Origin: Liolophura sinensis | Taxonomy: Eukaryota > Mollusca > Polyplacophora > Chitonida > Chitonidae | Direction: 5' to 3' | NCBI RefSeq assembly: GCF_032854445.1 | Contig: NC_088302.1 | Coordinates: forward strand, 52,606,046 to 52,670,045 | Length of the DNA: 64,000 bases | Part shown: positions 2,096 through 57,583 of the stretch, piece by piece | How the letters are laid out: each line of letters opens with the position of its first letter | How positions within the stretch are numbered: the first letter of the stretch is position 1 | Position numbers and translations under genes: made by a program | The notes under the pieces: model-generated | Database searches by the model: none | Seen by the model: only the letters and a program-made list of their open reading frames with translations | Told to the model about the DNA's origin: nothing

Positions 2096-5000
2096 GTAAG
2101 GTTCAAGTAATTGACTGAAAACATGTATACATTCACATTTGAAGTCTACTGCCTACATTTCAGTTCTGATCTTGTTCCCTACAAACATAACTGTCAACTT
2201 AATGTTAAGAAAGATGACTTTTTCACCACACTGAAAAAGTTACATTAGAAGTCCATTGCCTAGAAGTATGCAATTTCCCTATAGCTAGTCTCCACGGCGC
2301 TTAAAGCTTTTCTTCAGTCTGTTAACACATTATGTGATATGTCTGCGCAGACATGTTTTTCTCTTTCTCTCTATTGCGCAGCAAATGTTTGTGAAACACC
2401 TGACCCATGATGGGTTCCAAATGGTTCTGTTGAAATAGACTTAAAAAATTAGTACAACGGAAAATTTGGTAAAAGAACATCAATGTCTTTTATGGTAACT
2501 GTTTTATGATTGCTTGGAAATATAAAGATAGTCTATGTGTTCCTAACTGCATAGTGACAGTGATCAGCAGAATAGTAGTTTTTAAATACCGAGGTTCAGT
2601 TGCAAGGTGTGGCCAGTTCTTGTAACAGCCGTTGACAACTGGATTTTTCATTGAGCTCACAATTTCCACCTAAGAGATTGACTTGTTTCTCCACCAGGTG
2701 GCATGAGCTTCTACAAATGACATAACATGTGTACTGTACTGTGGAGACTAGCTATAGGAACCTTGCATATCTCCAGAAATGGATTTCTGGTTACATGTAC
2801 TACCTTGGGGTTGGTTTAGCAAAGCTTGGGCACTGTTACATATGATTTTAATCACTATGGTAATGGACTGCTTACAATACTAGTATCTATGGTAACAATT
2901 AACTAGTTGAGAACATTACAGTGCTGCAGAGGTTTTGTTGAACTAGATCCAGCAGTCTACAATCATTATAAAGAACATATAGATGTATCTGAGCCTCCCA
3001 TGCGATTCGTGTTAACACAATGTTAAAATGCACCTATTCATCCAAAATTGCAGTGAAGTAAGGTGTTAATTCTTCAGCAATCAGTTGATTTAGATTTTCA
3101 ACATTGAGTTAAAGGAATAGGCCGCACATTACTATGGGTAACTACAGATAATATGTAGTAACCAGTACAGGGGTGAGTAGTAACCAGTACAATGAGTAAT
3201 AGCCAGTATAGAAATCAGTAGTGGGTGGGTAGTAACCAATACAGCAGTGAGTAGTAACCAGTACAACAATGAGTAGTAACCGGTACAACAATAAGTAGTA
3301 ACAAGTACAAGAATAAATAGTTACCAGTACAACAATGAGTATAATATTCAGTTAATAACAGTGAGGCAAACCCAGTACAGCAATGAGTAGCACCAGTGGG
3401 CAATAACCAGTACAACAATGAGTAATGACCAACACAAAAATGAGGAATAACCAGTACAGCAATGAGTAATGACCAGCATAAAAATGAGGAATAGCCAGTA
3501 CAGCAGTGAGTAATGACCAGCACAAAAATGAGGAATAGCCAGTACAGCAATGAGTAATGACCAGCACAAAAATGAGGAATAGCCAGTACAACAATGAGTA
3601 ACGACCAGCACAAAAATGAGGAATAGCCAGTACAGCAATGAGTAATAACCAGCACAGCAATGAAGATTGAGGAATAACCAATACAACAATAATTAATAAT
3701 TATAATATGTTTTATTTATTTTTGCCTGATGCTGGGAGTTCTATTGTTATATTTTAGAAAAGTGTTTTCAGGTCTTTTGTAGGGTCATATGATATCCACC
3801 GGAAGTGATATTTCATGGCTTTTATCTGCCATTAAACATTCATGAGGCAAAATTTTCAGGCAAATACAGTACATCTTTGTTCTTAAAATACAGGTTCTGA
3901 CTTTTTAGAAACTTGGGCATTTTTTGAAAAATCAAATTATATCTAGGTGAATGTTCCTATGTCAGTATGTATAGTTACATGTATTACCAACTTTTATACT
4001 TTACAGGTTTCATGTACAATGACCTGGGGTTAATATTCACCCAGTGCAACATCTATGACAAAGCTGAGATGTGTTTTAACTTGGGCTTACAAGATAGCAG
4101 AAAACCTAATGGTGATGAGAAACAGCAGGCTGTTCTCTTACAGAACCTGGGGGCCATCTATAATTTTCTTGGAGACTACAGAAGATCTTTACAATTTCAT
4201 GAGGAAGCAGCTACAAAATATGGTACACGTTCAATCCTTTTTTTGTGTTTAAAGATTATGGTAAGCTTTTAGATATATCATAAAGCTGAATATGTAGGAT
4301 AATTCTTTTCCGTAAGCTTCCTTAAATCTAAGTTGGTCATTTAGAGTACATTTCATGAGAAGTTCATCTCCTAAGGCCTCACAATTACCCAGCATTTCAG
4401 CATTGCAGAATTTTAAATTAACTTGCATGCATACTAAAGTCTTTGGATAAATAATTTCAGCTAAACAGAAGAATCGCACTTGTCAAGGCCAATGTTTTTG
4501 TAACCAAGCTTTTGCGTACAGCCAGCTAAGGGACTATGAGTCTGCCTCTGAAGCTTTCTTACATGCCCTCCAGGCAGCAAAAGATTCAGGTAAGTAGGCA
4601 CATTGACCCAGGAGCCTCTCACCATTCTGGTCGTTGTGAGTTCAAGTCCTCTCTGGCTGTATGTGAGATCATCTGCCAGCAACCTGCAGATGGTACTGGG
4701 TTTACCTGGGCTCTGCCCGGTTTTCTCCCACTATGATGCTGGCTGCTGTTGTGTAAGAGAACTGCTTTTGAGTATGGCGTAAAACACCAATCAAATAAAT
4801 AAATAATTATGGATGCTTTGCAAAGGGTTTGCAGGCCATTGATTCATGTGGCAAAAAAGTTGCTTTTCTTGTAGATGATTGGCTCTTGATCAGCAGGGTC
4901 ACATGCTTAGATCCAGCTTCACATGATGAACTAGCAAGTTTGTCATGTGCTTGACAATGGACATTGGGTTTTTTTTTCTTCCGAGGCTCTAAATGGATCC

Positions 5001-8000
5001 CTCCACTCATAAACTTGATTGCCATATTTCTGGTAAAAGTATTGTTGAGCCAAAAAAGGAAAAAGAAATAAGGTAAAATACTTTTTTTGAAATTATTTGT
5101 TCAAGTAGCGCTTTGCCATGCCAACGTATTGTGATGTGATTTTTTCTGCTTCAGATGATAAGCATTCCCGCTGGCAAATCCTGGAAGGCTTAGGTGTTGT
5201 CACATTTATTCAGGGCAACATCAACAAATCTATCAAGTTTTTAAAAGAAGCTTTGGCGGCTTTTAGCTGTACGGATGAGGTGAACAGTGGTGTTCAGGAC
5301 AGGCTGGTGGCAAAGCTGAGTAAAGCACTGGAGGCCCAAGTCATGGCCAAAACAAGCCCAGGTACAAATATGGAAATTCTCATTGGTGATGTACAGCCCA
5401 CTCAGATGGTAAGTATTCTCCATTATACATGCAATTTATAGAAGACAAAGAATAAGCACACTTGACACACCTCCAGCTGTGGGATAATGGTCATGTGACG
5501 GGTGTACTTGCTTGAAACTGTACCATCTAAGTTTATTTTAAAGGCAATAGAAGACAACCATGCAGACAGCACATTTGTAGACGAAATGAATCTTGTTTCA
5601 GTGAATCTAACTTATTTTCAAATATTAACTTACAGTCTGTCACTCTGTCTGTCTGTACTGTGTGTGTGAATGTTTGTTGTGCCATAATATTTGCACTTGA
5701 ATGTTTTCTCACAGTTATAGTGTACCTATACAGTCATCCTTGACTATTGCCTTTGAATGGGGGTAATCCCTTTTACCTGGTTAGCCGGTAGGGAAATGTT
5801 TTTTTATGCTGGCTATTGAAAGACATAGAGATTTTAAAGAAAGTAACATTTAAAGAAAATCCATCAGAAGGGGAATAAAAACTTAAGTATGGCCCAGTTT
5901 TAGAGGATTACCCCCAACAAACATATTTTTTATAATAACCTAGTTGTCCCTATAACTAATGAATTGCTAATCTAAGTTTGTGTGAGAGTTTTCAGTCACT
6001 GACTCTAAATGAACTCTAAATGAATTGTTTGTGCTGAAATCTCATAAAATCCAAGGGTTTAAGGAGTAGGGATAACGCATTAGGAATGCAAATCACTTTA
6101 TTCTATATGAGCATGGACGTCTTGATTATTGTTTATATTCATGCTTAACAAGGCAATTCTGCTTTAAAATTTATCAGGTACTTAAAAGACACATGAAGGA
6201 AAGGCAGATGGTTAATATTCCAATATCAGTTCATAACTATTGAGTTATACTTAAACCAAGTAGGGGCCTCCGTGGCTCAGTCGGTTAAAGCGCTAGTGCG
6301 GCGTAATGACCCAGGAGTCTCTCACCAATGCGGTTGCTGTGAGTTCAAGTCCAGGTCATGCTGGCCGTACATGAGGAGGTCTGTCAGCAACCTGCGGATG
6401 GTCGTGGGTTTCCCCCGGGCTCTGCCCGGTTTCCACCCACCATAATGCTGGCCGCCGTCGTATAAGTGAAATGTTCTTGAGTACGGCGTAAAACACCAAT
6501 CAAATAAATAAATAAATAAACTTAAACCAAGTCACACCGATTTGTGTACCTGTAAAGCAACATGCCTTTCCCAAGAAAGCTGAATATAGATTATTGCATT
6601 CTTCTGTGTATTTACCACTGTCAGATTTGCTTATATGAAGTAACCTGCTCTTTTCATATACCCGTATATTTAAACCTGATCGAATGCACATTATTATACA
6701 TTCTCTTACTTGAAAGTTGTTCTCAAAACTCTTCTTTTCTGTCCTCTTTGCATTTAAATTTCTGGCTAATGAATGTTAGACTGTTTCCTTTAATGACACC
6801 ACCAAGACCTAAATCAGTCAATACAGTCTACACGTTGAAAGCATATCATGAATTCCTTTTTGAATTGATAACTCTGATAGCCATGGAGGTATGTGGTACA
6901 GGTTAACTATTAAAACTGCCCTGACGATGTTGTCATGAAATGTTCAGATTGTATACTTCATGTGCCTGAAATGGTCATTAGCAACAAGAAATATTATTAA
7001 GGTTAATATTTACACAAAATTTTAGTGTGCTTCTTATGTCATGACCAGACAGAACGGGCCATGCGATCTGAGACAGATTAGATGATAATTGAAGGTATTA
7101 AAGCAGAAATTGATTACATTTAGATTTCCTAGCCTGTGCAGTGACATTGGTACACTCACTATTGAAATAAGCAATAGTTTCCTTTAATGGCACCACCAAG
7201 CCTTAATCAGTTCATGCAGTCTTTGGACGTAATTGTCCTGATTGTGAAGGGTGCTATATTATGTGATTAATCACCCATCACATAAAATTTCTAGCACTCG
7301 TCACGCTAATGAGCCTTTTTAATTAACAAAGATTAGAGGAATAACTTCACAATGTAAATGCTTTCTTCAAGTTGACACAAGAAAACAAAGAGAAACATTT
7401 TTGTATACGTATATGTTGTGGGAATAAAAAAAATTCATCTAAATTCTGACAGGTGCTTCATAATAATTTAAAAATTTTAATAATAAAATTAAAAAACTGA
7501 ACTGAAATTCATTCAAGTTTTCTGTGTTTTGTCAAAACCTTTGACCAAGGAGACAAAAAAACAGATAGAGAAATGGTTGAAAATACAGGCACATGTGTTA
7601 AATATCTGGTGTTTCAATTTTTGGTGAATTTCTTGAAATCAGCACTCCCATTATCAGTCCTCATAGATGGCACACTTTGTCTTCAAAATTATATATTCCT
7701 GGATCAGTTAAGTAAACTTAAAACACTTATCTTTCAGATAGTATACAACTGATATAGTAGGGTACAAGTTCAATAATTAGCATAAGTGAATAAGTTATAC
7801 ATGGCATTGACCATATACTTGTATGGTGTAAGAAAAACTCTTGCAATTGGTATCAGTTCGTAGCAGACAGTTGTTTCCATTCTCCAGTGGTAGGGCCAAA
7901 ATATCTACAATTGCCAGTAGTATGCGCTAGTGGCACAGCTCTCACTAGATCTCTAGTCGAAACTGGCTTTGTGTGAGACTCCCTTTACACTGATAATTCT

Positions 8001-20314: not shown

Positions 20315-20326
20315 TCAAGCCCAGAC
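20315..20326 (-). CDS. GNB5: GNB5 coding exon 10 (V-W-A-stop)
   Basis: After ttcttcag the exon reads GTC TGG GCT TGA, supplying the family C-terminus VWA that exon 9 lacks. Only 12 coding nt, then the 3'UTR. Confidence 0.93.
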   Translation of the reverse strand, partial: VWA

Positions 20327-23300
20327 CTGAAGAAAGAGAAACAACATTTAACAGCAAAACAACACCCATAAAAGAGACATAATTCATTTTTACAAAAAAG
20401 CTGGATACTACAAATAACATTGAAGCAGGTTTGACAAACTACTGAGTACCTCTGTATGCCTGTAAGACAAAAGATTATTTCACGCAATTTAGGAAGATGT
20501 TTTGGGAACAGTATTACTGTATTAAATCGAAATATAATCCAAAATAGCACAAATACTGTCAAGGCATCGTCATTGAATACAAAATAAAAAATATGAATAC
20601 ATTCTTCTACCATCCTGGTTTAATTTTCTTTAACAGATAATTAACTTCTTTCTAGAGATAAAAGTTTTTTTCACATAGTGTATGCAAGGGTTACTTAATT
20701 GTTTCTACGACTGCTTTTTATGCCACAGAAATTCACTCTTTCACAATGTCAGTCAGTTTTGGACTTATACAAAAAGTAACACTATCCCATTACATTTTCA
20801 GACATGTAAAGCTTTGGGGGCATTATCAGCAGCTATGCTTAATTATTACAAGTACCGTAATTATTTCGACAGCAAAAATCTACAGTAAAACTAAGAGTAT
20901 GAATTCTGAATTGGATTTCACACCTAAAATATCAACTGTCTTCCCTTCACCACTGACAATTAATGAATGTTTCTCTCTTACATGCTATCAGCAGTATAAC
21001 TAATTTTAGATATATTATTTCTCACATATTCATTTGGGAACTGGTGTCATTGGTTGTTTTGGAAACGGGTCTTGTGATTATTGATTTGGAACGCCCCTTC
21101 ATGGTTAACAAGTGATATGCAAATATCAGACTTAACACTTAGATTCACATTATATTTCATCCAAGCAGTCACAAACCTAAAACCTTAATGAGAGAGGTGA
21201 TATGTTATAACTTGTACAATGTGCCATAAATTGTCTTATACTTACTCGTAGCGTGTAATCCCAGCTGCCTGTGCAGAGCGCAGTGCCATCTGGTGAAACG
21301 CCCAGACAACTAACCCTGTTCTCATGACCATACAGTATACTGATTCGGTTCCCCTTCAGAACATCCCATACATTGACTGTGTAGTCGTTGTAACCTCCAT
21401 ACAGGATACGACCTGTCAAACAAAATACTCCTTTGTTACCTTAAGCTTTTTGTCCCATGAACACATATCAACACATCCAAAACACTACTCAGCATGGCAC
21501 AGTACGTTCAACATGGCACAGTATGTTCAGCATGGCACAGTATGTTCAGCACAACACATCATTATTTAATGTTATTTCCTTTTTCATTTAATGCTGTATA
21601 CATTGTACACGCCTTGTAATGAAACACATAAATTTCAGGGGCACATATTCAACAGGTCTTCGACAGAAGTTTGATGGAAAAACAAATCTAGCAAATCAAA
21701 AACTGATTTTAGATTTCTTATTATCTTATGAATATCTTTAACAATTTCACATGCCTGAACCATACAAGATTCAGGAGAAAGGATCATTTCTCTAAACTAT
21801 ATGTATGAAGATATATGAAGACAAGTACATATTTACACAACAGAAAGGCTTTCACATAAACGGTGATCAGAACTCATAGTAATACAGACGTGGCACAAAG
21901 GTGAATAAAGACAATTCTGGCATATGAAACCTTCTGTAGTGCAAATCTTTGCACATGTTTGCACATGAAGCTATGATAGAGGTAGTACCTACCACTGACA
22001 GAGAAGTCGACTGAGTTACAGCCAAAGATGATGCTCTCCTTCTTGTAACAGTTCACCTCCCTGTCTGCCCGCAGATCAAACAGTCGACACTAGACATAAA
22101 GAGCATAGGGTAGGTGTAATACGCCTGAGAAGGCTATGTGTTAAGGGCTATCACATCACTTCTTGTAACAGGTCACCTCCCTGTCTGCCCACAGATCAAA
22201 CAGTTGACACTAGACATAAAGAGCATAGAGTAGGTGTAATACGCCTGAGAAGGCTATGTGTTAAGAGCTATCACATCACTTCTTGTAACAGGTCACCTCC
22301 CTGTCTGCCTGCAGATCAAACAGTCCACACTAGACATAAAGAGCACAGAGTAGGTGTAATACGCCTGAGAAGGCTATGTGTAAAGAGCTATCACATCACT
22401 TCTTGTAACACTTCATCTCCCTGTCTGCCTGCAGATCAAACAGTCGACACTAGACATAAAGAGCACAGAGTAGGTGTAATACGCCTGAGAAGGCTATGTG
22501 TAAAGAGCTATCACATCACTTCTTGTAACAGGTCACCTCCCTGTCTGCCCACAGATCAAACAGTCCACACTAGACATAAAGAGCATAGGGTAGGTGTAAT
22601 ACGCCTGAGAAGGCTATGTGTTAAGAGCTATCACATCACTTCTTGTAACAGGTCACCTCCCTGTCTGCCCACAGATCAAACAGTCCACACTAGACATAAA
22701 GAGCACAGAGTAGGTGTAATAAGCATGAGAAGGCTATGTGTTAAGAGCTATCACATCACTTCTTGTAACAGGTCACCTCCCTGTCTGCCTGCAGATCAAA
22801 CAGTCCACACTAGACATAAAGAGCACAGAGTAGGTGTAATATGCCTGAGAAGGCTATGTGTTAAGGGCTATCACATCACTTCTTGTAACAGTTCACCTCC
22901 CTATCTACCCACAGATCAAACAGTCGACACTAGACATAAAGAGCATAGGGTAGGTGTAATACGCCTGAGAAGGCTATGTGTTAAGAGCTATCACATCACT
23001 TCTTGTAACAGGTCACCTCCCTGTCTGCCTGCAGATCAAACAGTCGACACTAGACATAAAGAGCATAGGGTAGGTGTAATACGCCTGAGAAGGCTATGTG
23101 TTAAGAGCTATCACATCACTTCTTGTAACAGTTGACCTCCCTGTCTGCCCGCAGATCAAACAGTCCACACTAGACATAAAGAGCATAGGGTAGGTGTAAT
23201 ACGCCTGAGAAGGCTATGTGTTAAGAGCTATCACATCACTTCTTGTAACAGTTCATCTCCCTGTCTGCCCGCAGATCAAACAGTCCACACTAGACATAAA

Positions 23301-26300
23301 GAGCATAGGGTAGGTGTAATATGTCTGAGAAGGCTATGTGTTAAGAGCTATCACATCACTTCTTGTAACAGTTCACCTCCCTGTCTGCCCGCAGATCAAA
23401 CAGTCGACACTAGACATAAAGAGCATAGGGTAGGTGTAATATGCCTGAGAAGGCTATGTGTTAAGAGCTATCACATCACTTCTTGTAACAGTTCATCTCC
23501 CTGTCTGCCCGCAGATCAAACAGTCGACACTAGACATAAAGAGCATAGGGTAGGTGTAATACGCCTGAGAAGGCTATGTGTTAAGAGCTATCACATCATT
23601 TCTTGTAACAGTTCACCTCCCTGTCTGCCCGCAGATCAAACAGTCGACACTAGACATAAAGAGCACAGGGTAGGTGTAATATGCCTGAGAAGGTTATGTG
23701 TTTAGAGCTATCACATCACTTCTTGTAACAGGTCACCTCCCTGTCTGCCCGCAGATCAAACAGTCGACACTAGACATAAAGAGCACAGGGTAGGTGTAAT
23801 ATGCCTGAGAAGGCTATGTGTAAAGAGCTATCACATCACTTCTTGTAACAGTTCACCTCCCTGTCTGCCCGCAGATCAAACAGTCGACACTAGACATAAA
23901 GAGCATAGGGTAGGTGTAATATGCCTGAGAAGGCTATGTGTTAAGAGCTATCACATCACTTCTTGTAACAGTTCACCTCCCTGTCTGCCCGCAGATCAAA
24001 CAGTCGACACTAGACATAAAGAGCACAGGGTAGGTGTAATATGCCTGAGAAGGCTATGTGTTAAGAGCTATCACATCACTTCTTGTAACAGTTGACCTCC
24101 CTGTCTGCCCGCAGATCAAACAGTCGACACTAGACATAAAGAGCATAGGGTAGGTGTAATATGCCTGAGAAGGCTATGTGTTAAGAGCTATCACATCACT
24201 TCTTGTAACAGTTCACCTCCCTGTCTGCCCGCAGATCAAACAGTCCACACTAGACATAAAGAGCACAGAGTAGGTGTAATACGCCTGAGAAGGCTATGTG
24301 TTAAGAGCTATCACATCACTTCTTGTAACAGTTCACCTCCCTGTCTGCCCGCAGATCAAACAGTCCACACTAGACATAAAGAGCACAGAGTAGGTGTAAT
24401 ACGCCTGAGAAGGCTATGTGTTAAGAGCTATCACGTCAACATTCTCTCATCAATTTGGATATTGCCATTCCTGGAACAAATGAGCAGGGTCTATGAACTA
24501 GAGAATATGTGACTACAAATCCACAATCAATAAATAGAAAAGAACAAAGGAGATTTACCCTTACGTTTTCATCAATTCACTATCAAAGTGGAAGTCATTT
24601 CTGTCTGACAACCTCCTTCCTAACTCATTATTTTCAATGTGCAAATCTAATCTAAAACTACCTAAATTTACTCAATACTCAATTCATGTGCAAGGCTTAG
24701 TTGAAACCATTTTTGTTTGAAATATCCCCAATATTCGTGCACCTGCCACTCGGTTGAGAGACACATACCGTGGCGTCATCTGAGCCTGTGGCGAAAGCGT
24801 CCCCACTGGGATAAAACCTGACGCTGTTGATATCTGATTCGTGTCCCTCAAACACCTGCACACTCTCCCCGGTTCTCATGTCCCATATCATTGCCATCTT
24901 GTCACAGCCCTGAACAACAAAAAAACCATCTTCATGTATAGGCCAGGGGCCACTTTCACAATGTTTTGTGGGGCAGGGGCCACTTTCACAGAGATGTTGT
25001 ACTTGTACCATATCGCACATATAGGACAATGGTATGTTAGTAGCTACGTACAAAATATCGTACGACTAAAAACTGTTGTACGCTGCTTTGTGAAAGTGGC
25101 CCATGGGCTGTCACACCTTGAAAAATTTCAAATGTCTTGACTTTTCCAAACTACTTGGAATAAAAATTCTTTATTTATGTAAATTTTAAGAAAGGTAAAA
25201 TGATCACATTATTTGACTTTCACAGCACTGCATAAAATATGTTGGAAAACAAAAAACATATTCAACAGAATGTCAGCACACTATGTACAGTAGCTCAGAA
25301 TGGTTCTGTAGCCGGTTTACAGATCTGCTTGCTGGAAGTATAACAATCCAATTCTTAATTTCATGGCTTTTTCAAGCTTAAAACTACAAAAAAGCTTTGC
25401 TTTTCCAAACTTTTAGCCCTATGTACATACCCCAGAAACAAACAAGCTGCCAGTCTCTGACGGAGACAGGTCAATACTCATGACATCACCATGGTGACCA
25501 TGGAAACTCTGGATTAGCTGACCACTCTCCACATCCCACAATGCACAAGTGCTGTCCCCACTCCCTGTCAATATCTGAAGAGAAGAAAGGCATTTAACAC
25601 CTAGGTCATGAATACAGACAGGAGAATGGATATTTCATGTGTCATACTGAATTTGTCACAACAGTATACATATGACACATTATATGTATTTGTATATATT
25701 CTATTTCAGTAATGACAAATAATTTCCATGCTGTTTTTTCTTTTCTTTTGTAGTTGTTTGAGCAGCGATGTAACAGGTGGCTGCAGGAAAAACTGAAGTG
25801 ATGCCGTACGATACTCATTATTTTTGTACAATATGAGTGTCTTACCATGTGTAACAGAGCTACCAGCACACTGGGTACCAAACACACATGCAATGTCCCA
25901 TCGCTTACACTGGGATACTTATATTGCCGACACTGGGATGGCATACACTTTACGCTATCTTCATAAATGTAAGCTATGTGGGTATCACTAGATGAAGTAA
26001 TGTGGTTGCCAGTTTTAAAGTCTATGTCTTGACCTAGCCCTGTCTATGCTGCAGAATAATTTCCAACAAAAATTTGCAGGTTAGCATGGAATTGTATGCA
26101 CGTGTTTTAAATATTGTTTTCACCTAGAATGTCACACTGTTTATGCGTGATGATATCTATTCAATAGGGGCACTAGGGTGCTATATGATCACCTATCCGT
26201 TTGCATCCTATGAATTAGAGAATTGGCTACCTGTTGGTCAGAGCTGGTAAAGGTAGAACAGGACAAGTAGCTGGTGTGGGTAGCCACAGCCTTCTTCTTA

Positions 26301-29300
26301 CTGGCTGGGTCTTCATCCAGACTTAAAGGGTAAACAGTACACTTGTTATCCAAGCCTCTGGCATGAAAAAAACAAAACAAAAAGGATTAAAAGTATGTTC
26401 CATCAACAAAATAATAGTTGGAATGTTTGCTAGATGATACACATTACATTTCCATGAATGTTTATTGCCACAATGTATGTATAACTTTCAGTAAGAATAC
26501 AAAGATTTAGATTTTAAAGAGTTATCAAAACATTATTCATGAACTAAAATGTTACATTAAAAGGGTAAATTTTCTTTGTGTGAAATAAGCAAAACATAAC
26601 AACAATCCATAAATCAGAAAAGACAGACAAGCATAAAAAAAAAACATGACATCATTGGCTGAGATAAAATTACAGCACATTTGGCATTTAGTGCTTTCAA
26701 TTCTTGAATGTAAAAAAAAAAAAAAAAACAAAAGGGAAAAAAAAGGCAACGTGATTTATGTTTTACCACATCATTATTTGTGCTTGTCACAATCTTCTCA
26801 CACCCATGGCAAATATGACAATGACAACAAAAGAGTTCATGTGGCCACTAGACACAAAAAATGTCACACACATGCTAAAACACTCTTGTGGTTTAAAGGT
26901 TGTGTTTATCACAGGGATTATAAGAACAGGGTGATTCCGGTAAGTGTCATAAGCTGGTTAACTATGAGAGGAATGTCAGAGATTCACATGGAACTCTGCA
27001 TGGATTCTCACATCATCCTTACATCAGCGTGTTATCAAGCATGATAAGCCTATTATCTCTTACCCACAAGCCACCACACTTCCTGATGGGCCGTATGAGC
27101 AGGCCATCACCCAGGTCGTCGGCATGGTAACAGCATGTTCCTGTCAAAGCAACAGCTGTAACATTACTGACGAAAATAGAGCACAATTATGTATAAATGT
27201 GCACTTTTCAAGACAACCAGAAAATGATGAAGCAGAATGCAACTTTTAACTTTCATCCACCTGTTATTAATTTCATACAGTATCAACTGCAGCTTGCACA
27301 GCATGCTTTGCAATGTTTGGTTTAAATTTCAATAGTTAATTTGCATATTCGTTTATTCCAACCCACATAAATATTTGTACATGTACACTTAAAGACAATA
27401 AATTGAATGCTACTAATCCTGAAATACACACACACAAAAAAAGTATTTTATTTACAATAATCATAATAATTTACAATAATCTGCAAAATCTGTAAAAGCT
27501 GAAGAAACAGATACATGTATACGGGAATGTCTGTCAGCTACATGCGAATGGTTATGGGTCCCCCCTCTGCTTGGTTAGCTCTCACTATAACGCTGGCCGT
27601 CCTCAAACACATGAAATATTCTTGAGTACAGCATAAACCTCCAATCATACAAATAAATAAAGAGATTTAGCTATTTACTCAGTACTGACCTTATTAGTGG
27701 TAAAGGCGTCCCATACCAGCATCTTGCCATCCTGTAAACAGTGCCACAAAAAATCAGAAAATGTCAGGTAGCAAATCTCTGCCATATAAGCCTTTGACAC
27801 TGTTAGATTTGTGTACCTGTTTTACAGCTCAGGTAGATTATCTATTAACTTTGTGCTAAAAATACTTTTTACAATTGTTATACCCAGATATGTATCTACA
27901 GTTTGATGCCATGCAAAACTGTATTCCTATAATTATTTACAACTGTTGCTGGGCCACAAAAAATGTTTAACATCAGACAAAAATGGTGGCCTTTTCAGAT
28001 CACATCTAAGTGATGGGACATCACATCGCTTACTTCATAGGAATTCACTTAGTTGTCAGCAGATCATTTTAAATATAATTATTTTCTGTAAAATCATCTC
28101 TGTCCAAAAAACCATCTCAGAAAATAATTGCTTGCTTTCAAGAGTTTCTCTCTAATAAAAAAAAATGTAAAAAATGAATTTGAAGAATTTCTGGACAGTT
28201 ACACATATTATTTTTGACTTTATGTGCATTTTAACCTAGTGAATTACTTGTATGTATTATTATTATATTATTATGCATACTTCTACTTCAAAAGCTTGAC
28301 TAATTAATATGCATATAATCTATTGGATTTAAAATATCCCTCTCTTGGCATGCTGAATGAGGGGTGCCCCAGATTGAGAATAACTAGGTTAGTCGTTGAG
28401 AGTATCAGAACCTTAGCATGATTGGATTGGATTAACTCGTTAAACTAATTAATCTCTATCAAACCTGCTGTAACTGCAATATCCTTCCTGACCTCGGATA
28501 TTTATGCAAAGTCTGAGATCAATCCCGACAGCTGATTGGGCTACAATACCCTAATCACGATTTCAATCAAATTCCCCATTAAAGGAGAAGAAAACTTAAA
28601 AAAATGACACTATAGGCTGAAAAGAGCACATTTTTTTCTATCTGGGAGAACCTGCTGTTTGCCATACACGTAAAGTCTGAAAACGGCAAAGCTGGCATAA
28701 ATTGTGGAGTCCATCGCGTCCTCCATCTTTAACACCCTGTAATTTATACTGGGGTGTGTTGCCTCTCAGCCAATGAGAGTTGTTAAAACTGCCAGCTTGT
28801 TCAAGTAAACTTTTTAGCCTACGTCCAACATTTCGGTTTCCTGATCATCAAGCGGAAAATGAAATGTACTGTTCGCTACCTTCTGGGAAGAAGAGTTCCA
28901 CCGGAAATGCTCGAACTGCACTTCGGCGGTTTCCGACAGCAATTGTCCTCCTAACACAGAAGACTTCAGGACTAGTTCTAAGGCAAAATGGGATGGCCCA
29001 CAGCGGATGTTGGCGCTGACTTTATTTATAATTTATCAACTTGAGAAACATATTAGATGGCATCCACCTGTGAGGAAGTGTTGAATTTACAATACATCCT
29101 CCTTCATATGTTAGATATTGTGTGCACAGAGCTTGATAATAATTGAAGGAGTAGATTGGAGAAAAACTAGATTTCAACAAATATGTAACTAGAAACATAG
29201 TCTGACCAGAGAGAAGCTATATACCTCCTTCAATAAAATTAACACTGTTCTTTTCAGCAGTAAACTGACCCCAAGGTGTAAAATCTCCATGTTGTAAGGC

Positions 29301-31466
29301 TGCTATGTGTACATAAATATTTCAACAACCTATGGCTTGAGGTCCCTTTTAAAGGTGCAATTTTAAGAGTAGCCTGCATGAGATGGAACCTCAGAAAATG
29401 GCTAATGGCAAGTTTCAGAGTAATTTTGTAAACTTATTTGTAAAGCACATACAATCAACATTTTTTCTTTTTTTTTCAATCCATCGTAAGCTAATTTAAA
29501 ATTCCTGACCCTAATTAAGTACAATTGACAGTTTAAATACAGTACATATAATACATTAAGCTAAAAACTCAGACTTCATTTAAAATCTCTTGATATTTCT
29601 ACAAGTCTCAAAAGCTGATATCATGTACTTTTTTTTTTTATTCTGTTGCCTAAAAAAATATTTTTCACACACTGCATACTTTAATAGAAGAGGTCCCATT
29701 TCTCGTAGTTTCACGCCTCAAAAACTCACGTTACATCACAAAGGCTGTCATCTAACAAGGATCTGAGAAATAATTCATAGCAGGCCTATTAGATTGGTGT
29801 TCTTAATACACTGCTGAAGGATAGGGAATATATGCATGAGTTCCCCTGTATTGATAGAAGCTTTCTTGTATGAACTGAAAATGCAAGGTTGTACCACTGA
29901 ACCTTAATTGTTTGGTTTTTCACACTGACCAACTCAATCTGAACTTGAAACTTTCTTCTGACATACAGGCAGAACCGCTGAGCCAGGTTTGATAATGATA
30001 TTTACAGAGAGTATCTTACAAGCATATCTTCTGCATACTCACAATATTTTATATATTCATATTTATATCTTGTGTAGAATTATATTATAATTTGCATTCT
30101 GAGTTGCCTTGTTAATTGAATGAATCAGTTAATATACAATGTATTCTACGTCAAATAAGCAGTCTTACTCATTTCCCATGTCGACATAACTTTAAATTTC
30201 ATCCAAGACAAAGTTTTTTACTTCGCCTCTTTCTGAAAGCTCTAATTGTATAGAAAAATGTTTCGAGCTTTCTCTGAAATATAAGATGATATCGTACTGG
30301 AAAAAAGTATGTTTTAACACCAAAGTAATGCAGGTATTTCATGACCTTTACTTGAGTCTGAAAATATGTTTTTCTTTTTGAGCAAATTTTTTGGGTAAAA
30401 GTAAAGTAGACTCCTCATCCTCTGATGATTAGTAAAACATCAGAATTAAAATGTTTTGCACAGCTCCCTTCAGCTGGGGATAGGACACTGCTGTCGATGA
30501 AGTTTATCATGTGCATTACATGTATATGCTACCTGTTTACAACTTGCTTGAAAACAGCTAATCTAACACGTTAATCTTAACATGTTAGTCTTAAATGCAA
30601 ACCAGTAGTATCAAAACACAGAGTGCTACAGCATTTCTGAAAAATTCTTGACACCTATTTCCATAACTGGTTCCTAGGACTTGTTAATATCTGTACAAAT
30701 GGCATACCTGTGATGAGGAGACAATGTGTCGTTTATCAGTTGACCAGTCCATACACAGCACCTTCCCCTGGTGGCCCTTTAGGACTCGCCGAGACTTGAT
30801 GTTCAACTGGGGAAGACCTTCCAGCCGCTGAGCTACCACACACACTGCAACACAAAGGTTTGAGTACTTCTTAGTTGTGTCTTACTCATTTTCTGAGTAC
30901 CCACAGCACGTTCTTGGAAGTTGTTTCAAGACGATGTGAGAAAGAAAATAAAACAGTAAACTGTATAACATTTAAACTTAATAAGAACTGGTTGTAGTTT
31001 TTGGGGGCGTTAAATATCAAATGTCCGGCTAATAACGAAAACTGAGCACCTGATAATGCATCTGATTAATAATTTTAACTTAGACACTTTCCTAGAAAAA
31101 AGCAGGTCGTCAGCCACATCGATTCAACTGATCACATTTACATCTACACATTAAGTATAATTGCAAAAGAATCGGTAACACCTTGAAACACTGATGTCCT
31201 TCATTGTTAAACGAAAACTTAACACTTGTTACGTCAACAATCTTGTCGCAACTCAACTGTCAACATCCTGTTTGATTTGAACACAGCAGTCCACGACGAT
31301 GAAAAATAAGAAAATAGGCATTATTCACTGAATAACTAGACTTACTGTCAACATCGTTAAGTTTTGCTTTTTCCTCTTCTAGTTTAACCTTCAAAGACTC
31401 CGCTTCTCTGCTCAAAGAATCGATTGATTCGGTTGTGTTGTCAACCCGCAGCGCTTCAGTCGCCAT
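20315..31466 (-). CDS. GNB5: G-protein subunit beta 5 (10 coding exons, complete)
   Basis: Joined on the minus strand: 31466-31346, 30844-30708, 27731-27690, 27140-27064, 26357-26231, 25574-25431, 24909-24769, 22089-21993, 21412-21246, 20326-20315. This gives 354 aa, against 353 aa for the short human isoform as I recall it. The N-terminus is the GNB5-type coil ([20 protein letters not shown]), followed by seven WD40 blades. Diagnostic stretches are [90 protein letters not shown] and [18 protein letters not shown]5 binds the GGL domain of R7 RGS proteins instead of a gamma subunit, and tunes G-alpha-i/o signalling, mainly in neurons. Every AG/GT and phase fits. Intron 7 contains the 120 bp splice-site array. 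Confidence 0.97.
21246..21412 (-). CDS. GNB5: GNB5 coding exon 9
   Basis: [20 protein letters not shown], then [20 protein letters not shown] and [16 protein letters not shown]. Phase 1 start, phase 0 end, donor gtaagt. Forms most of the last blade. Confidence 0.97.
21490..21555 (+). repeat. Short 20 bp tandem repeat (GNB5 intron 8)
   Basis: Three copies of 'catggcacagtatgttcag' with small differences. Confidence 0.75.
21993..22089 (-). CDS. GNB5: GNB5 coding exon 8 (parent of the 120 bp array)
   Basis: [20 protein letters not shown] then [12 protein letters not shown] plus one base. Acceptor ctag at 22093-22090, donor gtaggt. Its first 51 nt (17 codons) are the exonic part of the adjoining tandem array. 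This is the only copy that continues into ESIIFG and a proper donor. Confidence 0.96.
22039..24438 (-). repeat. 20 x 120 bp tandem array made of the GNB5 exon 8 splice-acceptor region
   Basis: Exactly 2400 bp, 20 units of 120 bp with no indel seen. Read on the minus strand, each unit holds 69 nt of intron (with a branch-point-like CTTAAC about 50 nt before the acceptor, and ctag), then 51 nt identical or nearly identical to the first 17 codons of exon 8. The lowest-coordinate unit (22039 on) is the real exon 8 start; the other 19 run on into a TGA straight after codon 17. Units differ by a few substitutions only, for example cagtcgacac (11 units), cagtccacac (8) and cagttgacac (1). Confidence 0.97.
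24769..24909 (-). CDS. GNB5: GNB5 coding exon 7
   Basis: Forty-seven codons: [20 protein letters not shown], then [20 protein letters not shown] and TGSDDAT. Phase 0 on both sides, donor gtatgt. Near-identical to the human counterpart. Confidence 0.97.
24977..25102. mobile_element. MITE-like element with 14 bp terminal inverted repeats (GNB5 intron 6)
   Basis: gggccactttcaca at 24977-24990 is matched perfectly, inverted, by tgtgaaagtggccc at 25089-25102. An extra copy of the left end sits about 30 bp upstream (near 24947). No coding content. A non-autonomous DNA transposon is the likeliest explanation. Confidence 0.65.
25431..25574 (-). CDS. GNB5: GNB5 coding exon 6
   Basis: Forty-eight codons: [20 protein letters not shown], then [20 protein letters not shown] and TGSLFVSG. 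Phase 0 on both sides, donor gtatgt. Contains a complete WD40 blade with the ALWD signature. Confidence 0.96.
26231..26357 (-). CDS. GNB5: GNB5 coding exon 5
   Basis: [20 protein letters not shown], then [20 protein letters not shown] and QQ. Phase 2 start, phase 0 end. The donor gtagcc is weaker than the others, but the junction falls exactly where SDxQ meets ILTxSGD in the family. Confidence 0.95.
27064..27140 (-). CDS. GNB5: GNB5 coding exon 4
   Basis: Residues 101-125 plus two bases: [20 protein letters not shown] then SVVAC. Phase 0 start, phase 2 end, donor gtaaga. Confidence 0.96.
27528..27661 (+). mobile_element. SINE 3' fragment (GNB5 intron 3)
   Basis: Degraded plus-strand copy with 'tgtctgtcagctacatgcga', 'aacgctggccgtcctc', 'tgaaatattcttgagtacag' and a tail of CAAATAAATAAA. 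Confidence 0.8.
27690..27731 (-). CDS. GNB5: GNB5 coding exon 3 (42 nt)
   Basis: Fourteen codons, [14 protein letters not shown], bounded by tttacag and gtcagt and in phase 0 on both sides. Matches the human segment DGKVIVWDSFTTNK. Confidence 0.96.
30708..30844 (-). CDS. GNB5: GNB5 coding exon 2
   Basis: Residues 41-86: [20 protein letters not shown], then [20 protein letters not shown], ending IVSSSQ. This is the start of the propeller. Phase 1 start, phase 0 end. Confidence 0.97.
31346..31466 (-). CDS. GNB5: GNB5 coding exon 1
   Basis: Residues 1-40: starts [20 protein letters not shown] and runs into the coiled-coil segment. ATG at 31466-31464. The first four residues MATE match the start of the short GNB5 isoform. 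Phase 1 end, donor gtaag. Confidence 0.97.
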
Positions 31467-35289: not shown

Positions 35290-36290
35290 CCTTGTTTCAG
35301 CAGGTGTGTTAGTTACTTGGTAAAGTTACGTGGTCCCTTGTTTCAGTAGGTGTGTCACGTATACCTGATGAAGGGAGATGGTCCCTTGTTTCAGCAGGTG
35401 TGTCATGTGTACCTGATGAAGGGATGTGGTCCCTTGTTTCAGCAAGTGTGTCAGGTATACCCGGTGAAGGGAGATGGTCCCTATTTTCAGCAGGTGTGTC
35501 AGGTATGCCTGGTGAAGGAAGGTAGTCCCTTGTTTCAGCAAGTGTGTTAGGTATACCCGATGAAGGGAGACGCTCCCTTGTTTCAGTAGGTGTGTCAAGT
35601 GTACCTGATGAAGGGAGGTGGTCCCTTGTTTCAGCAGGTCTGTCAGGTATACCCGATGAAAAAATGTGGTCCCTTGTTTCAGCAGGTCTGTCAGGTATAC
35701 CTGGTGAAGAAAGGTGGTCCCTTGTTTCAGCAGGTGTATCAGGTATACCTGATGACGGGAGATGATGCCTTGTTTCAGCTGGTGTGTTATGTACACCTGG
35801 TGAAGAGAGATGGCCCCTTGTTTCAGCAGGTCTGTCAGGTATACCTGGCGAAGAAAGGTGGTCCCTTGTTTCAGCTGGTGTGTCAAGTATACCTGATGTC
35901 GGGAGATGGTCTCTTGTTTCAGCAGGTCTGTCAGGTATACCTGGTGAAGAAAGGTGGTCCCTTGTTTCAGCTGGTGTGTCAAGTATACCTGATGTCGGGA
36001 GATGGTCCCTTGTTTCAACAGGTCTGTCAGGTATACCTGGTGAAGAAAGGTGGTCCCTTGTTTCAGCTGGTGTGTCAAGTATACCTGATGTCGGGAGATG
36101 GTCCCTTGTTTCAGCAGGTCTGTCAGGTATACCTGGTGAAGAAAGGTGGTCCTTTGTTTCAGCAGATGTGCCATTGTTATCTGGTGACAGAAGAGGTATA
36201 CCTGGAGGTGGGCCCTTGCTGTAGGAAGTGTGTCAGGTGTACCTGAGGAAGTGAGGTCGTCCCTTGTTTCAGCAGGTGTGCCAGGTATAT
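35290..36290 (+). repeat. Minisatellite, 48 bp unit with 96 bp higher-order structure
   Basis: About 20 copies of a unit containing 'cccttgtttcagcaggtgtg' and 'tcaggtatacctggtgaag'. From about 35850 to 36160 two variants alternate ('gaagaaaggtggt' and 'gatgtcgggagatggt'), making a 96 bp unit. Because 48 is a multiple of three, several frames on both strands stay open for long stretches. Confidence 0.95.
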
Positions 36291-57319: not shown

Positions 57320-57583
57320 TTTATTTATTTATTTGATTGGTGTTTTACGCCGTACTCAAGAATATTTCACTTATACGACGTCGGCCAGCATTATGGTGGG
57401 TGGAAACCGGGCAGAGCCCGGGGGAAACCCACGACCATCCGCAGGTTACTGGAAGACCTTCCCACATACGGCCGGAGAGGAAGCCAGCATGAGCTGGACT
57501 TGAACTCACAGCGACCGCATTGGTGAGAGACTCCTGGGTAATTACGCTGCGCTAGCGCGCTAACCAACTGAGCCACGGAGGCC
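57320..57583 (-). mobile_element. Full-length tRNA-derived SINE with target-site duplication
   Basis: Reverse-strand copy of the same family as 6262-6520, head at 57583 (ggcctccgtggctcagttgg when read on the minus strand), tail of AAATAAATA at 57320. An 11 bp duplication, acaagagttga, flanks it at 57309-57319 and 57584-57594. Confidence 0.95.

What the first reader, a model, noticed from the sequence alone, without database searches (positions are those of the whole stretch)
22039..24438. Twenty tandem copies of a complete 3' splice site plus exon start inside GNB5
Seen directly: exactly 20 x 120 bp with no indel, each unit containing a branch-point-like CTTAAC, the ctag acceptor and the first 17 codons of GNB5 exon 8. 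Only the unit at 22039 continues into the rest of exon 8. The other 19 are decoy acceptors that, if used, would add 17 codons and then meet an in-frame TGA. Known: duplicated acceptors can compete, and early stops trigger decay. Inference: this is either a natural splice-acceptor array that lowers or tunes GNB5 output (more copies, less product), or it is tolerated because the acceptor nearest the intact exon wins. The uniform length points to recent growth by unequal exchange.
Basis: partly seen in the sequence, partly recalled or inferred. Interest (0 to 1): 0.8.

Follow-up and report, generated by a model that had tools for sequence, protein, structure and literature searches.

The report
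Minisatellite copying a GNB5 splice site
A 120-letter stretch covering the end of an intron and the start of an exon in a mollusc's GNB5 gene is repeated 20 times in a row; similar repeats are known from lancelets and recur in other genes of this animal, so it is most likely a tolerated by-product of repeat growth and not a gene-tuning device.

Summary
The array is real: 20.0 x 120 bp at 22039-24438, no indels. It lies on the minus strand in intron 7/exon 8 of a complete 10-exon, 354-aa GNB5 coding model. Each unit is the last 69 nt of intron 7 plus the first 51 nt of exon 8. The AG is kept in 20 of 20 units and 19 of 19 decoys run into an in-frame TGA. CTTAAC is in 16 of 20 units, not all, and is a doubtful branch point. 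Decoy copies drift like neutral DNA and score no lower than the real acceptor, so the sequence shows no sign of weakening or tuning. Tandem repeats over intron-exon boundaries are a described kind, the 'mirages' of lancelets, reported not to disturb splicing (PMC3087553, PMC3902484, passages). This genome has molluscan-type hemocyanin. Of 81 sampled exon loci, 4 (RalA, kinesin-1, a kinesin-14 relative, a myosin) have such arrays, 3 over the donor and 1 over the acceptor. Best reading: a long new member of a known kind, tolerated because exon definition favours the junction attached to the intact exon. Copy-number tuning is not excluded but has no positive evidence; no RNA data were available.

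The parts
22039..24438 (-). array of 20 units of 120 bp; unit = last 69 nt of intron 7 + first 51 nt of exon 8
22039..22158 (-). unit 20, the only unit joined to the rest of exon 8; differs from the unit consensus at 1 intronic base
22090..22091 (-). AG of the presumed working 3' splice site of exon 8
   Evidence: use in RNA not tested
21993..22089 (-). GNB5 coding exon 8 (97 nt, enters in phase 0, leaves in phase 1); 22039-22089 lies inside the array
22090..24768 (-). intron 7, 2,679 nt, of which 330 nt (24439-24768) lie outside the array
22159..24438 (-). 19 decoy units: AG in 19 of 19, in-frame TGA after 17 codons in 19 of 19
22051..22059 (-). GAG|GTGAAC donor-like site inside exon 8 (GT at unit column 103), present as GTGA in 15 of 20 units
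   Evidence: scores from recalled weights
24769..24909 (-). GNB5 coding exon 7, ends ..CACG|gtatgtg
20315..31466 (-). GNB5 coding model, 10 exons, 354 aa and stop
   Evidence: (PF25391 WD40_Gbeta, 421.8 bits)

Best explanation
This is a minisatellite over a splice junction, of the kind called 'mirage' in lancelets. A tandem duplication took in the last 69 nt of intron 7 and the first 51 nt of exon 8 of GNB5, and the pair then grew to 20 units by unequal exchange or slippage (inferred). The copy at the exon end is joined to the intact exon and must keep coding (shown: unit 20 encodes the conserved peptide). The other 19 copies lie in the intron and drift (shown: changes fit neutral expectation). 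Splicing most likely uses the acceptor at 22090 because exon definition pairs it with the exon 8 donor across 97 nt, whereas decoys would need exons of 217, 337 and up to 2,377 nt (inferred). Leaky use of a nearby decoy would add 17 codons and a stop, and that RNA would be expected to decay (inferred). So the array mainly lengthens the intron and has little or no effect on GNB5 output.
For: Exact array at the junction. Full coding model around it. Exonic changes in decoys: 8 of 11 distinct changes are non-synonymous against 119 of 153 possible single changes (78%), i.e. no sign of protein constraint. The acceptor core is not specially conserved: longest invariant run 19 columns, reached by 38% of shuffles. 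Consensus CpG columns are the mutable ones: 5 of 6 against 16 of 114 others, P = 0.0006, as expected for methylated neutral DNA. Minisatellites fill 9.9% of the window and 12.9% of flanks of 81 exon loci. Four of 81 other loci have arrays over a splice junction in which copies mostly keep the splice dinucleotide (real site included): RalA 5 of 5 GT, myosin 7 of 7 GT, kinesin-1 20 of 21 GT, kinesin-14 relative 9 of 12 AG. Lancelet precedent: Adh3, TnC and globin BflGb6 (150-160 bp units of intron 3' end + exon 5' part) reported not to disturb regular splicing (passages).
Against: No RNA evidence of any kind was available. On recalled human-like weights 19 of 19 decoy acceptors score no lower than the real one (3.0-3.8 against 3.0), and 14 of 19 decoys also carry a donor-like site (2.1-2.4) inside the range of this gene's own donors (0.7-4.4), so the local sequence does not explain why decoys should lose. 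These scores are a poor guide in any case: an AG whose first exon base would be 24470, in the intron outside the array, scores 5.7, and the other AG of units 6, 17 and 18 scores 3.5. Unit 19 would define an exon of only 217 nt, within ordinary exon size. Arrays over junctions are about five-fold rarer than random placement would give (4 of 162 match ends against 20.8 expected), so they are probably not cost-free on average. PMC3087553 itself notes that such repeats could serve as cryptic sites giving alternative transcripts.
Confidence: 0.8

Rival explanations
1. Copy-number rheostat: decoy acceptors compete with the real one, decoy products stop after 17 codons and decay, so more copies give less Gb5, and the array is kept or adjusted by selection on dose.
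For: AG kept in 20 of 20 units and in-frame TGA in 19 of 19 decoys; decoys score no lower than the real site on recalled weights.
Against: AG retention is unremarkable: 99 of 120 columns never vary and the longest invariant run is no longer than shuffles give. Comparable arrays in four unrelated genes among 81 loci point to a genome-wide mutational habit. Lancelet Adh and TnC mirages are reported not to give aberrant mRNA (passage).
Confidence: 0.12
2. Microexon bank: decoy acceptors pair with the internal GAG|GTGA donor, giving in-frame 33-nt exons (11 codons, [11 protein letters not shown] type), so that copy number or splicing yields length variants of Gb5.
For: GTGA donor in 14 of 19 decoys, score 2.1-2.4, with 33 nt in frame and no stop between.
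Against: The donor-like site is also present in exon 8 itself, so it may be a by-product of the coding sequence. 33 nt is very short for exon definition. Residue R2 has changed in 9 of 19 decoys and R7 in 8 of 19, so the decoys are not kept as coding.
Confidence: 0.03
3. Assembly artefact: one or a few real units were multiplied in assembly.
For: Only one allele is present in the assembly. Such arrays have been miscounted before: a lancelet globin array was aberrantly assembled in the draft, and lancelet PGBD5 arrays have 2 or 7 and 3 or 6 units in two versions of the genome. The exact number 20 is therefore less sure than the array itself.
Against: 19 of 20 units are distinct, with a patterned distribution of variants; contig C8 is 58 Mb long; 37 of 81 sampled loci hold some array.
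Confidence: 0.04

Closest known systems
'Mirages' of lancelets (tandem repeats over exon-intron boundaries; Adh3, TnC, globins BflGb6 and BflGb9, PGBD5)
   Same: Tandem units that contain an intron-exon boundary with the splice signal, with one authentic copy. BflGb6 is the closest: units of 150-160 bp from intron 3' end and exon 5' part, 6 and 3 units on two haplotypes (PMC3087553, passages seen; PMC3902484, passages seen).
   Different: Different phylum (molluscan-type hemocyanin here) and more copies (20) than in the lancelet cases whose counts I saw. Transcript neutrality and length polymorphism are reported there but untested here.
Human interferon-induced (G1P3/IFI6) minisatellite with multiple splice donor sites
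   Same: A minisatellite that repeats a splice site (title of Cuin and Porter 1995 seen only in a reference list).
   Different: That one repeats donors with a short unit (12 bp, recalled); here a 120-bp unit repeats the acceptor.
Human internal tandem repeats at exon-intron boundaries in segmental duplications (PMC2812944)
   Same: Minisatellite expansion at exon-intron boundaries (abstract and passages seen).
   Different: Those are reported to generate novel introns and alternative splicing in recent paralogues; here there is no transcript evidence, and one search lists no second GNB5.

Membership tests
Minisatellite over a splice junction ('mirage' type) | tandem units that span an exon-intron boundary and include the splice signal | tested here: met
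   20 units, each 69 nt intron + 51 nt exon, AG in 20 of 20
Minisatellite over a splice junction ('mirage' type) | one authentic copy joined to the intact exon, others intronic | tested here: met
   only unit 20 continues into exon 8; that the others stay intronic is read from DNA
Minisatellite over a splice junction ('mirage' type) | regular splicing not disturbed | not testable with these tools
   no RNA data held
Minisatellite over a splice junction ('mirage' type) | copy-number polymorphism and somatic instability | not testable with these tools
   one allele in the assembly
Minisatellite over a splice junction ('mirage' type) | homogenisation within the array, array ends exempt | tested here: inconclusive
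   neighbours more alike than in shuffled order, P = 0.014; units 1-2 and 14-19 share variants that units 3-13 largely lack, but the exon-end unit 20 matches the middle
Mirage in the strict sense (the lancelet repeats so named) | occurs in a lancelet | tested here: not met
   PF14830 gives 8 hits in tandem within 11.5 kb and the PDB matches of one of them are hemocyanins, 3 of 14 with 8 matching stretches: a mollusc. I therefore do not file it under the lancelet repeats themselves, only under the wider kind
GNB5 (G protein beta-5) | full-length Gb fold, closer to Gb5 than to Gb1 | tested here: met
   PF25391 421.8 bits; a 135-aa part scores 278 bits with Gb5 chains against 217 with natural-length Gb1 chains; a 530-residue Gb1 construct with a repeated segment scores 393 by summing stretches

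The most novel reading that the evidence does not exclude
In this molluscan lineage minisatellites over splice junctions are a genome-wide layer (of the order of a few percent of exon ends), and the decoy sites do compete, so that array length sets how much productive mRNA GNB5 and many other genes make, with heritable and possibly somatic variation.
Probability: 0.1. Interest if true: 0.8.

Novelty: new member of a known kind. Interest (0 to 1): 0.42.

Why it matters
It suggests that repeat arrays over splice junctions, which my searches found in print for lancelets and a few human genes, are frequent in a mollusc: 4 of 81 sampled exon loci, plus GNB5. Each array is a natural experiment in which several to about 20 near-identical acceptors or donors compete in one gene. 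RNA from such genes would test directly how the spliceosome picks the junction attached to the exon, and how costly duplicated splice sites are.

Tried and rejected
RNA structure hiding the decoys: unit 20 folds no better than shuffles (z -0.62) and a stretch of six units likewise (z -0.44, 20 shuffles). Rfam: no match in the window at gathering scores. Antisense coding through the array: an open + strand frame of 367 aa exists (22032-23135), but with a 120-base unit a frame open in one unit stays open, and it breaks at later units; rejected as chance. Special conservation of the acceptor: not seen. Microhomology at the array ends: none seen by eye in the flanks. CTTAAC as branch point: two AGs lie between it and the acceptor; ATTAC 27 nt upstream has no AG between but is a weaker match. 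A second allele or copy of the array in the assembly: none listed. G-beta exons on C9 match at 62-68% (two of three matches there; the third is 29%) and are presumably another G-beta gene. An enrichment of arrays at junctions: not found; they are depleted (4 of 162 match ends against 20.8 expected). Literature: nine searches (open PMC only, listings) brought up lancelet and human cases and no mollusc case that I noticed in the listed titles and abstract beginnings; this does not show absence from print. Cañestro et al. 2002 (Adh minisatellite) is not held and was not read.

Limits of the sampling: the 81 loci are the best-scoring Ras, kinesin and myosin domain matches (30, 26, 25), not random exons. 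Some are single-exon genes, some lie in the same gene (L039 and L054 hold the same array, which is counted twice in the coverage), and match ends only approximate exon ends. The three hemocyanin loci and the four loci from the array itself (L001-L007) were left out of the 81. Not counted among the four: L029 (overlap 4 nt), L087 (10 nt away), L054 (22 nt away), and single extra copies near match ends in L024, L030 (acceptor side) and L087 (right end). Splice scores use human-like weights recalled from memory.
Full report
1. Is it there? Yes. The stretch 22039-24438 is 20.0 copies of a 120-bp unit at 96% with no indels. Cut into units on the minus strand, it has 21 variable columns of 120, 10 of 69 intronic and 11 of 51 exonic, and 19 distinct unit sequences of 20. 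A DNA search of the 609-Mb assembly lists 20 matches, all in this array.

2. The gene. I built a gene model from reading frames and splice signals: 10 coding exons from 31466 to 20315 on the minus strand, 354 aa and a stop, phases consistent throughout, with introns of 501, 2976, 549, 706, 656, 521, 2679, 580 and 919 nt. Pfam gives WD40_Gbeta at 421.8 bits. A 135-aa part scores 278 bits with solved Gb5 chains and 217 with natural-length Gb1 chains; the top hit by sum of stretches is a 530-residue Gb1 construct. Of the 2,679 nt of intron 7, 330 nt lie outside the array.

3. The unit. On the gene strand the unit is 69 nt of intron ending CTAG and 51 nt of exon (17 codons, phase 0). CTAG is kept in 20 of 20 units and TGA follows in frame in 19 of 19 decoys. 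CTTAAC is in 16 of 20. It stands 51 nt before the acceptor AG with two AGs between, one of them the TCAG at column 34, which is itself acceptor-like and kept in 19 of 20 units. So CTTAAC more likely belongs to no used site, or to that other AG (inference).

4. How the copies evolve. Of 11 distinct exonic changes against unit 20, 8 alter the protein; of all 153 possible single changes 119 would (78%). Five decoys and unit 20 encode [17 protein letters not shown]; 14 decoys do not. The longest invariant run, 19 columns around the acceptor, is matched or beaten in 38% of shuffles. Consensus CpG columns are variable in 5 of 6 cases against 16 of 114 elsewhere (P = 0.0006), as expected for methylated DNA that is free to drift. 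Neighbouring units are more alike than in shuffled order (P = 0.014). All this fits a drifting minisatellite with one selected end copy.

5. Splice strength. With human-like weights recalled from memory, the real acceptor scores 3.0 and the 19 decoys 3.0-3.8; this gene's other acceptors range from 0.8 to 10.9. Decoys therefore do not lose by local strength. Nor are these scores a good guide: an AG just before 24470, in the intron outside the array, scores 5.7. What differs is context: the real acceptor is 97 nt from the exon 8 donor; decoy 19 would make a 217-nt exon, and the others 337 to 2,377 nt. That exon definition protects the gene is my inference. It explains the far decoys better than the two or three nearest ones, where some leakage should be looked for. 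Inside each unit GAG|GTGA (15 of 20 units) could in principle close a 33-nt in-frame exon; I hold this unlikely. RNA folding gives no extra structure.

6. Is it special to GNB5? No. I took the best-scoring Ras (30), kinesin (26) and myosin (25) domain matches with 1.5 kb on each side. Arrays of period 10 or more and at least 2.5 copies cover 12.9% of the flanks and 0.56% of the matched coding bases, and 37 of 81 loci hold some array. Four of 81 loci have an array running at least 10 nt into the matched exon: L030 RalA, about 35 bp x 5 over the donor; L056 kinesin-1, 73 bp x 21.6 over the donor; L081 myosin, 66 bp x 8.1 over the donor; L043 a kinesin whose best structure matches are a kinesin heavy chain-like protein and a kinesin-like calmodulin-binding protein (kinesin-14 by recall), 64 bp x 11.8 over the acceptor, the same arrangement as in GNB5. 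The 95% interval for 4 of 81 is 1.4-12%. Splice dinucleotides are kept in 5 of 5, 20 of 21, 7 of 7 and 9 of 12 copies found, real site included. Decoy donors are weaker than the real one in 17 of 20 in kinesin-1, in 1 of 4 in RalA and in 0 of 6 in myosin. L029 has an array overlapping the match by only 4 nt, L087 one ending 10 nt and L054 one ending 22 nt from it; I did not count them. Against any idea that arrays seek junctions: 4 of 162 match ends are covered where 20.8 would be expected at random. Junction arrays are therefore selected against or formed less often, yet are not rare in this sample.

7. Which animal? PF14830, the hemocyanin beta-sandwich domain, gives 8 hits in tandem within 11.5 kb, and the 14 structure matches of one of them are named hemocyanin, 3 of them with 8 matching stretches. 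That eight-unit architecture is molluscan (established knowledge). I did not identify the species.

8. What is known. [quoted passage not shown] PMC3902484 (passages seen) adds PGBD5, with unit numbers that differ between two genome versions, and says that Adh and TnC mirages do not generate aberrant mRNAs. PMC2812944 (abstract and passages) reports repeats at exon-intron boundaries in human paralogues that do give new splicing patterns. A minisatellite with multiple splice donors in an interferon-induced human transcript is known to me from its title in a reference list. By anatomy the GNB5 array is of the mirage type; transcript neutrality, polymorphism and instability could not be tested.

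9. Verdict. Observation confirmed with three corrections. Most likely a tolerated mirage-type minisatellite. It is ordinary as a mechanism, and of interest because it is long and because such arrays seem frequent in a mollusc. Tuning of GNB5 output remains possible and has a clear test.

Noticed in passing
L030 1699-1873; L056 1605-3168; L081 56-1514 (minus gene); L043 773-1529: Four more minisatellites that copy a splice junction, in RalA, kinesin-1, a myosin and a kinesin-14 relative of the same genome.
   Followed up: yes
L029 1691-2496; L087 707-1491: Minisatellites that abut a splice junction of a Rab-like and a myosin exon without clearly containing it.
   Followed up: partly
window 24471-24472, minus strand: An AG in intron 7 upstream of the array (first exon base would be 24470) scores higher (5.7) on recalled weights than the real exon 8 acceptor (3.0).
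   Followed up: no
window 4619-4843, 6322-6531, 57320-57526: Similar translated stretches (..WCFTPYS..) on both strands suggest a dispersed repeat, perhaps a SINE; resemblance to molluscan SINEs is recalled only.
   Followed up: no
window 35309-36232, minus strand: 307-aa open frame made of 48-bp repeats (16 codons), with one weak Pfam match (Ish1, 32 bits).
   Followed up: no
window 22032-23135, plus strand: 367-aa open frame antisense to the array, a 40-aa repeat; unsurprising since the unit is 40 codons long.
   Followed up: partly
window 22039-24438: Variation is concentrated at consensus CpG columns (5 of 6 variable), which hints at germline methylation of this gene body.
   Followed up: partly
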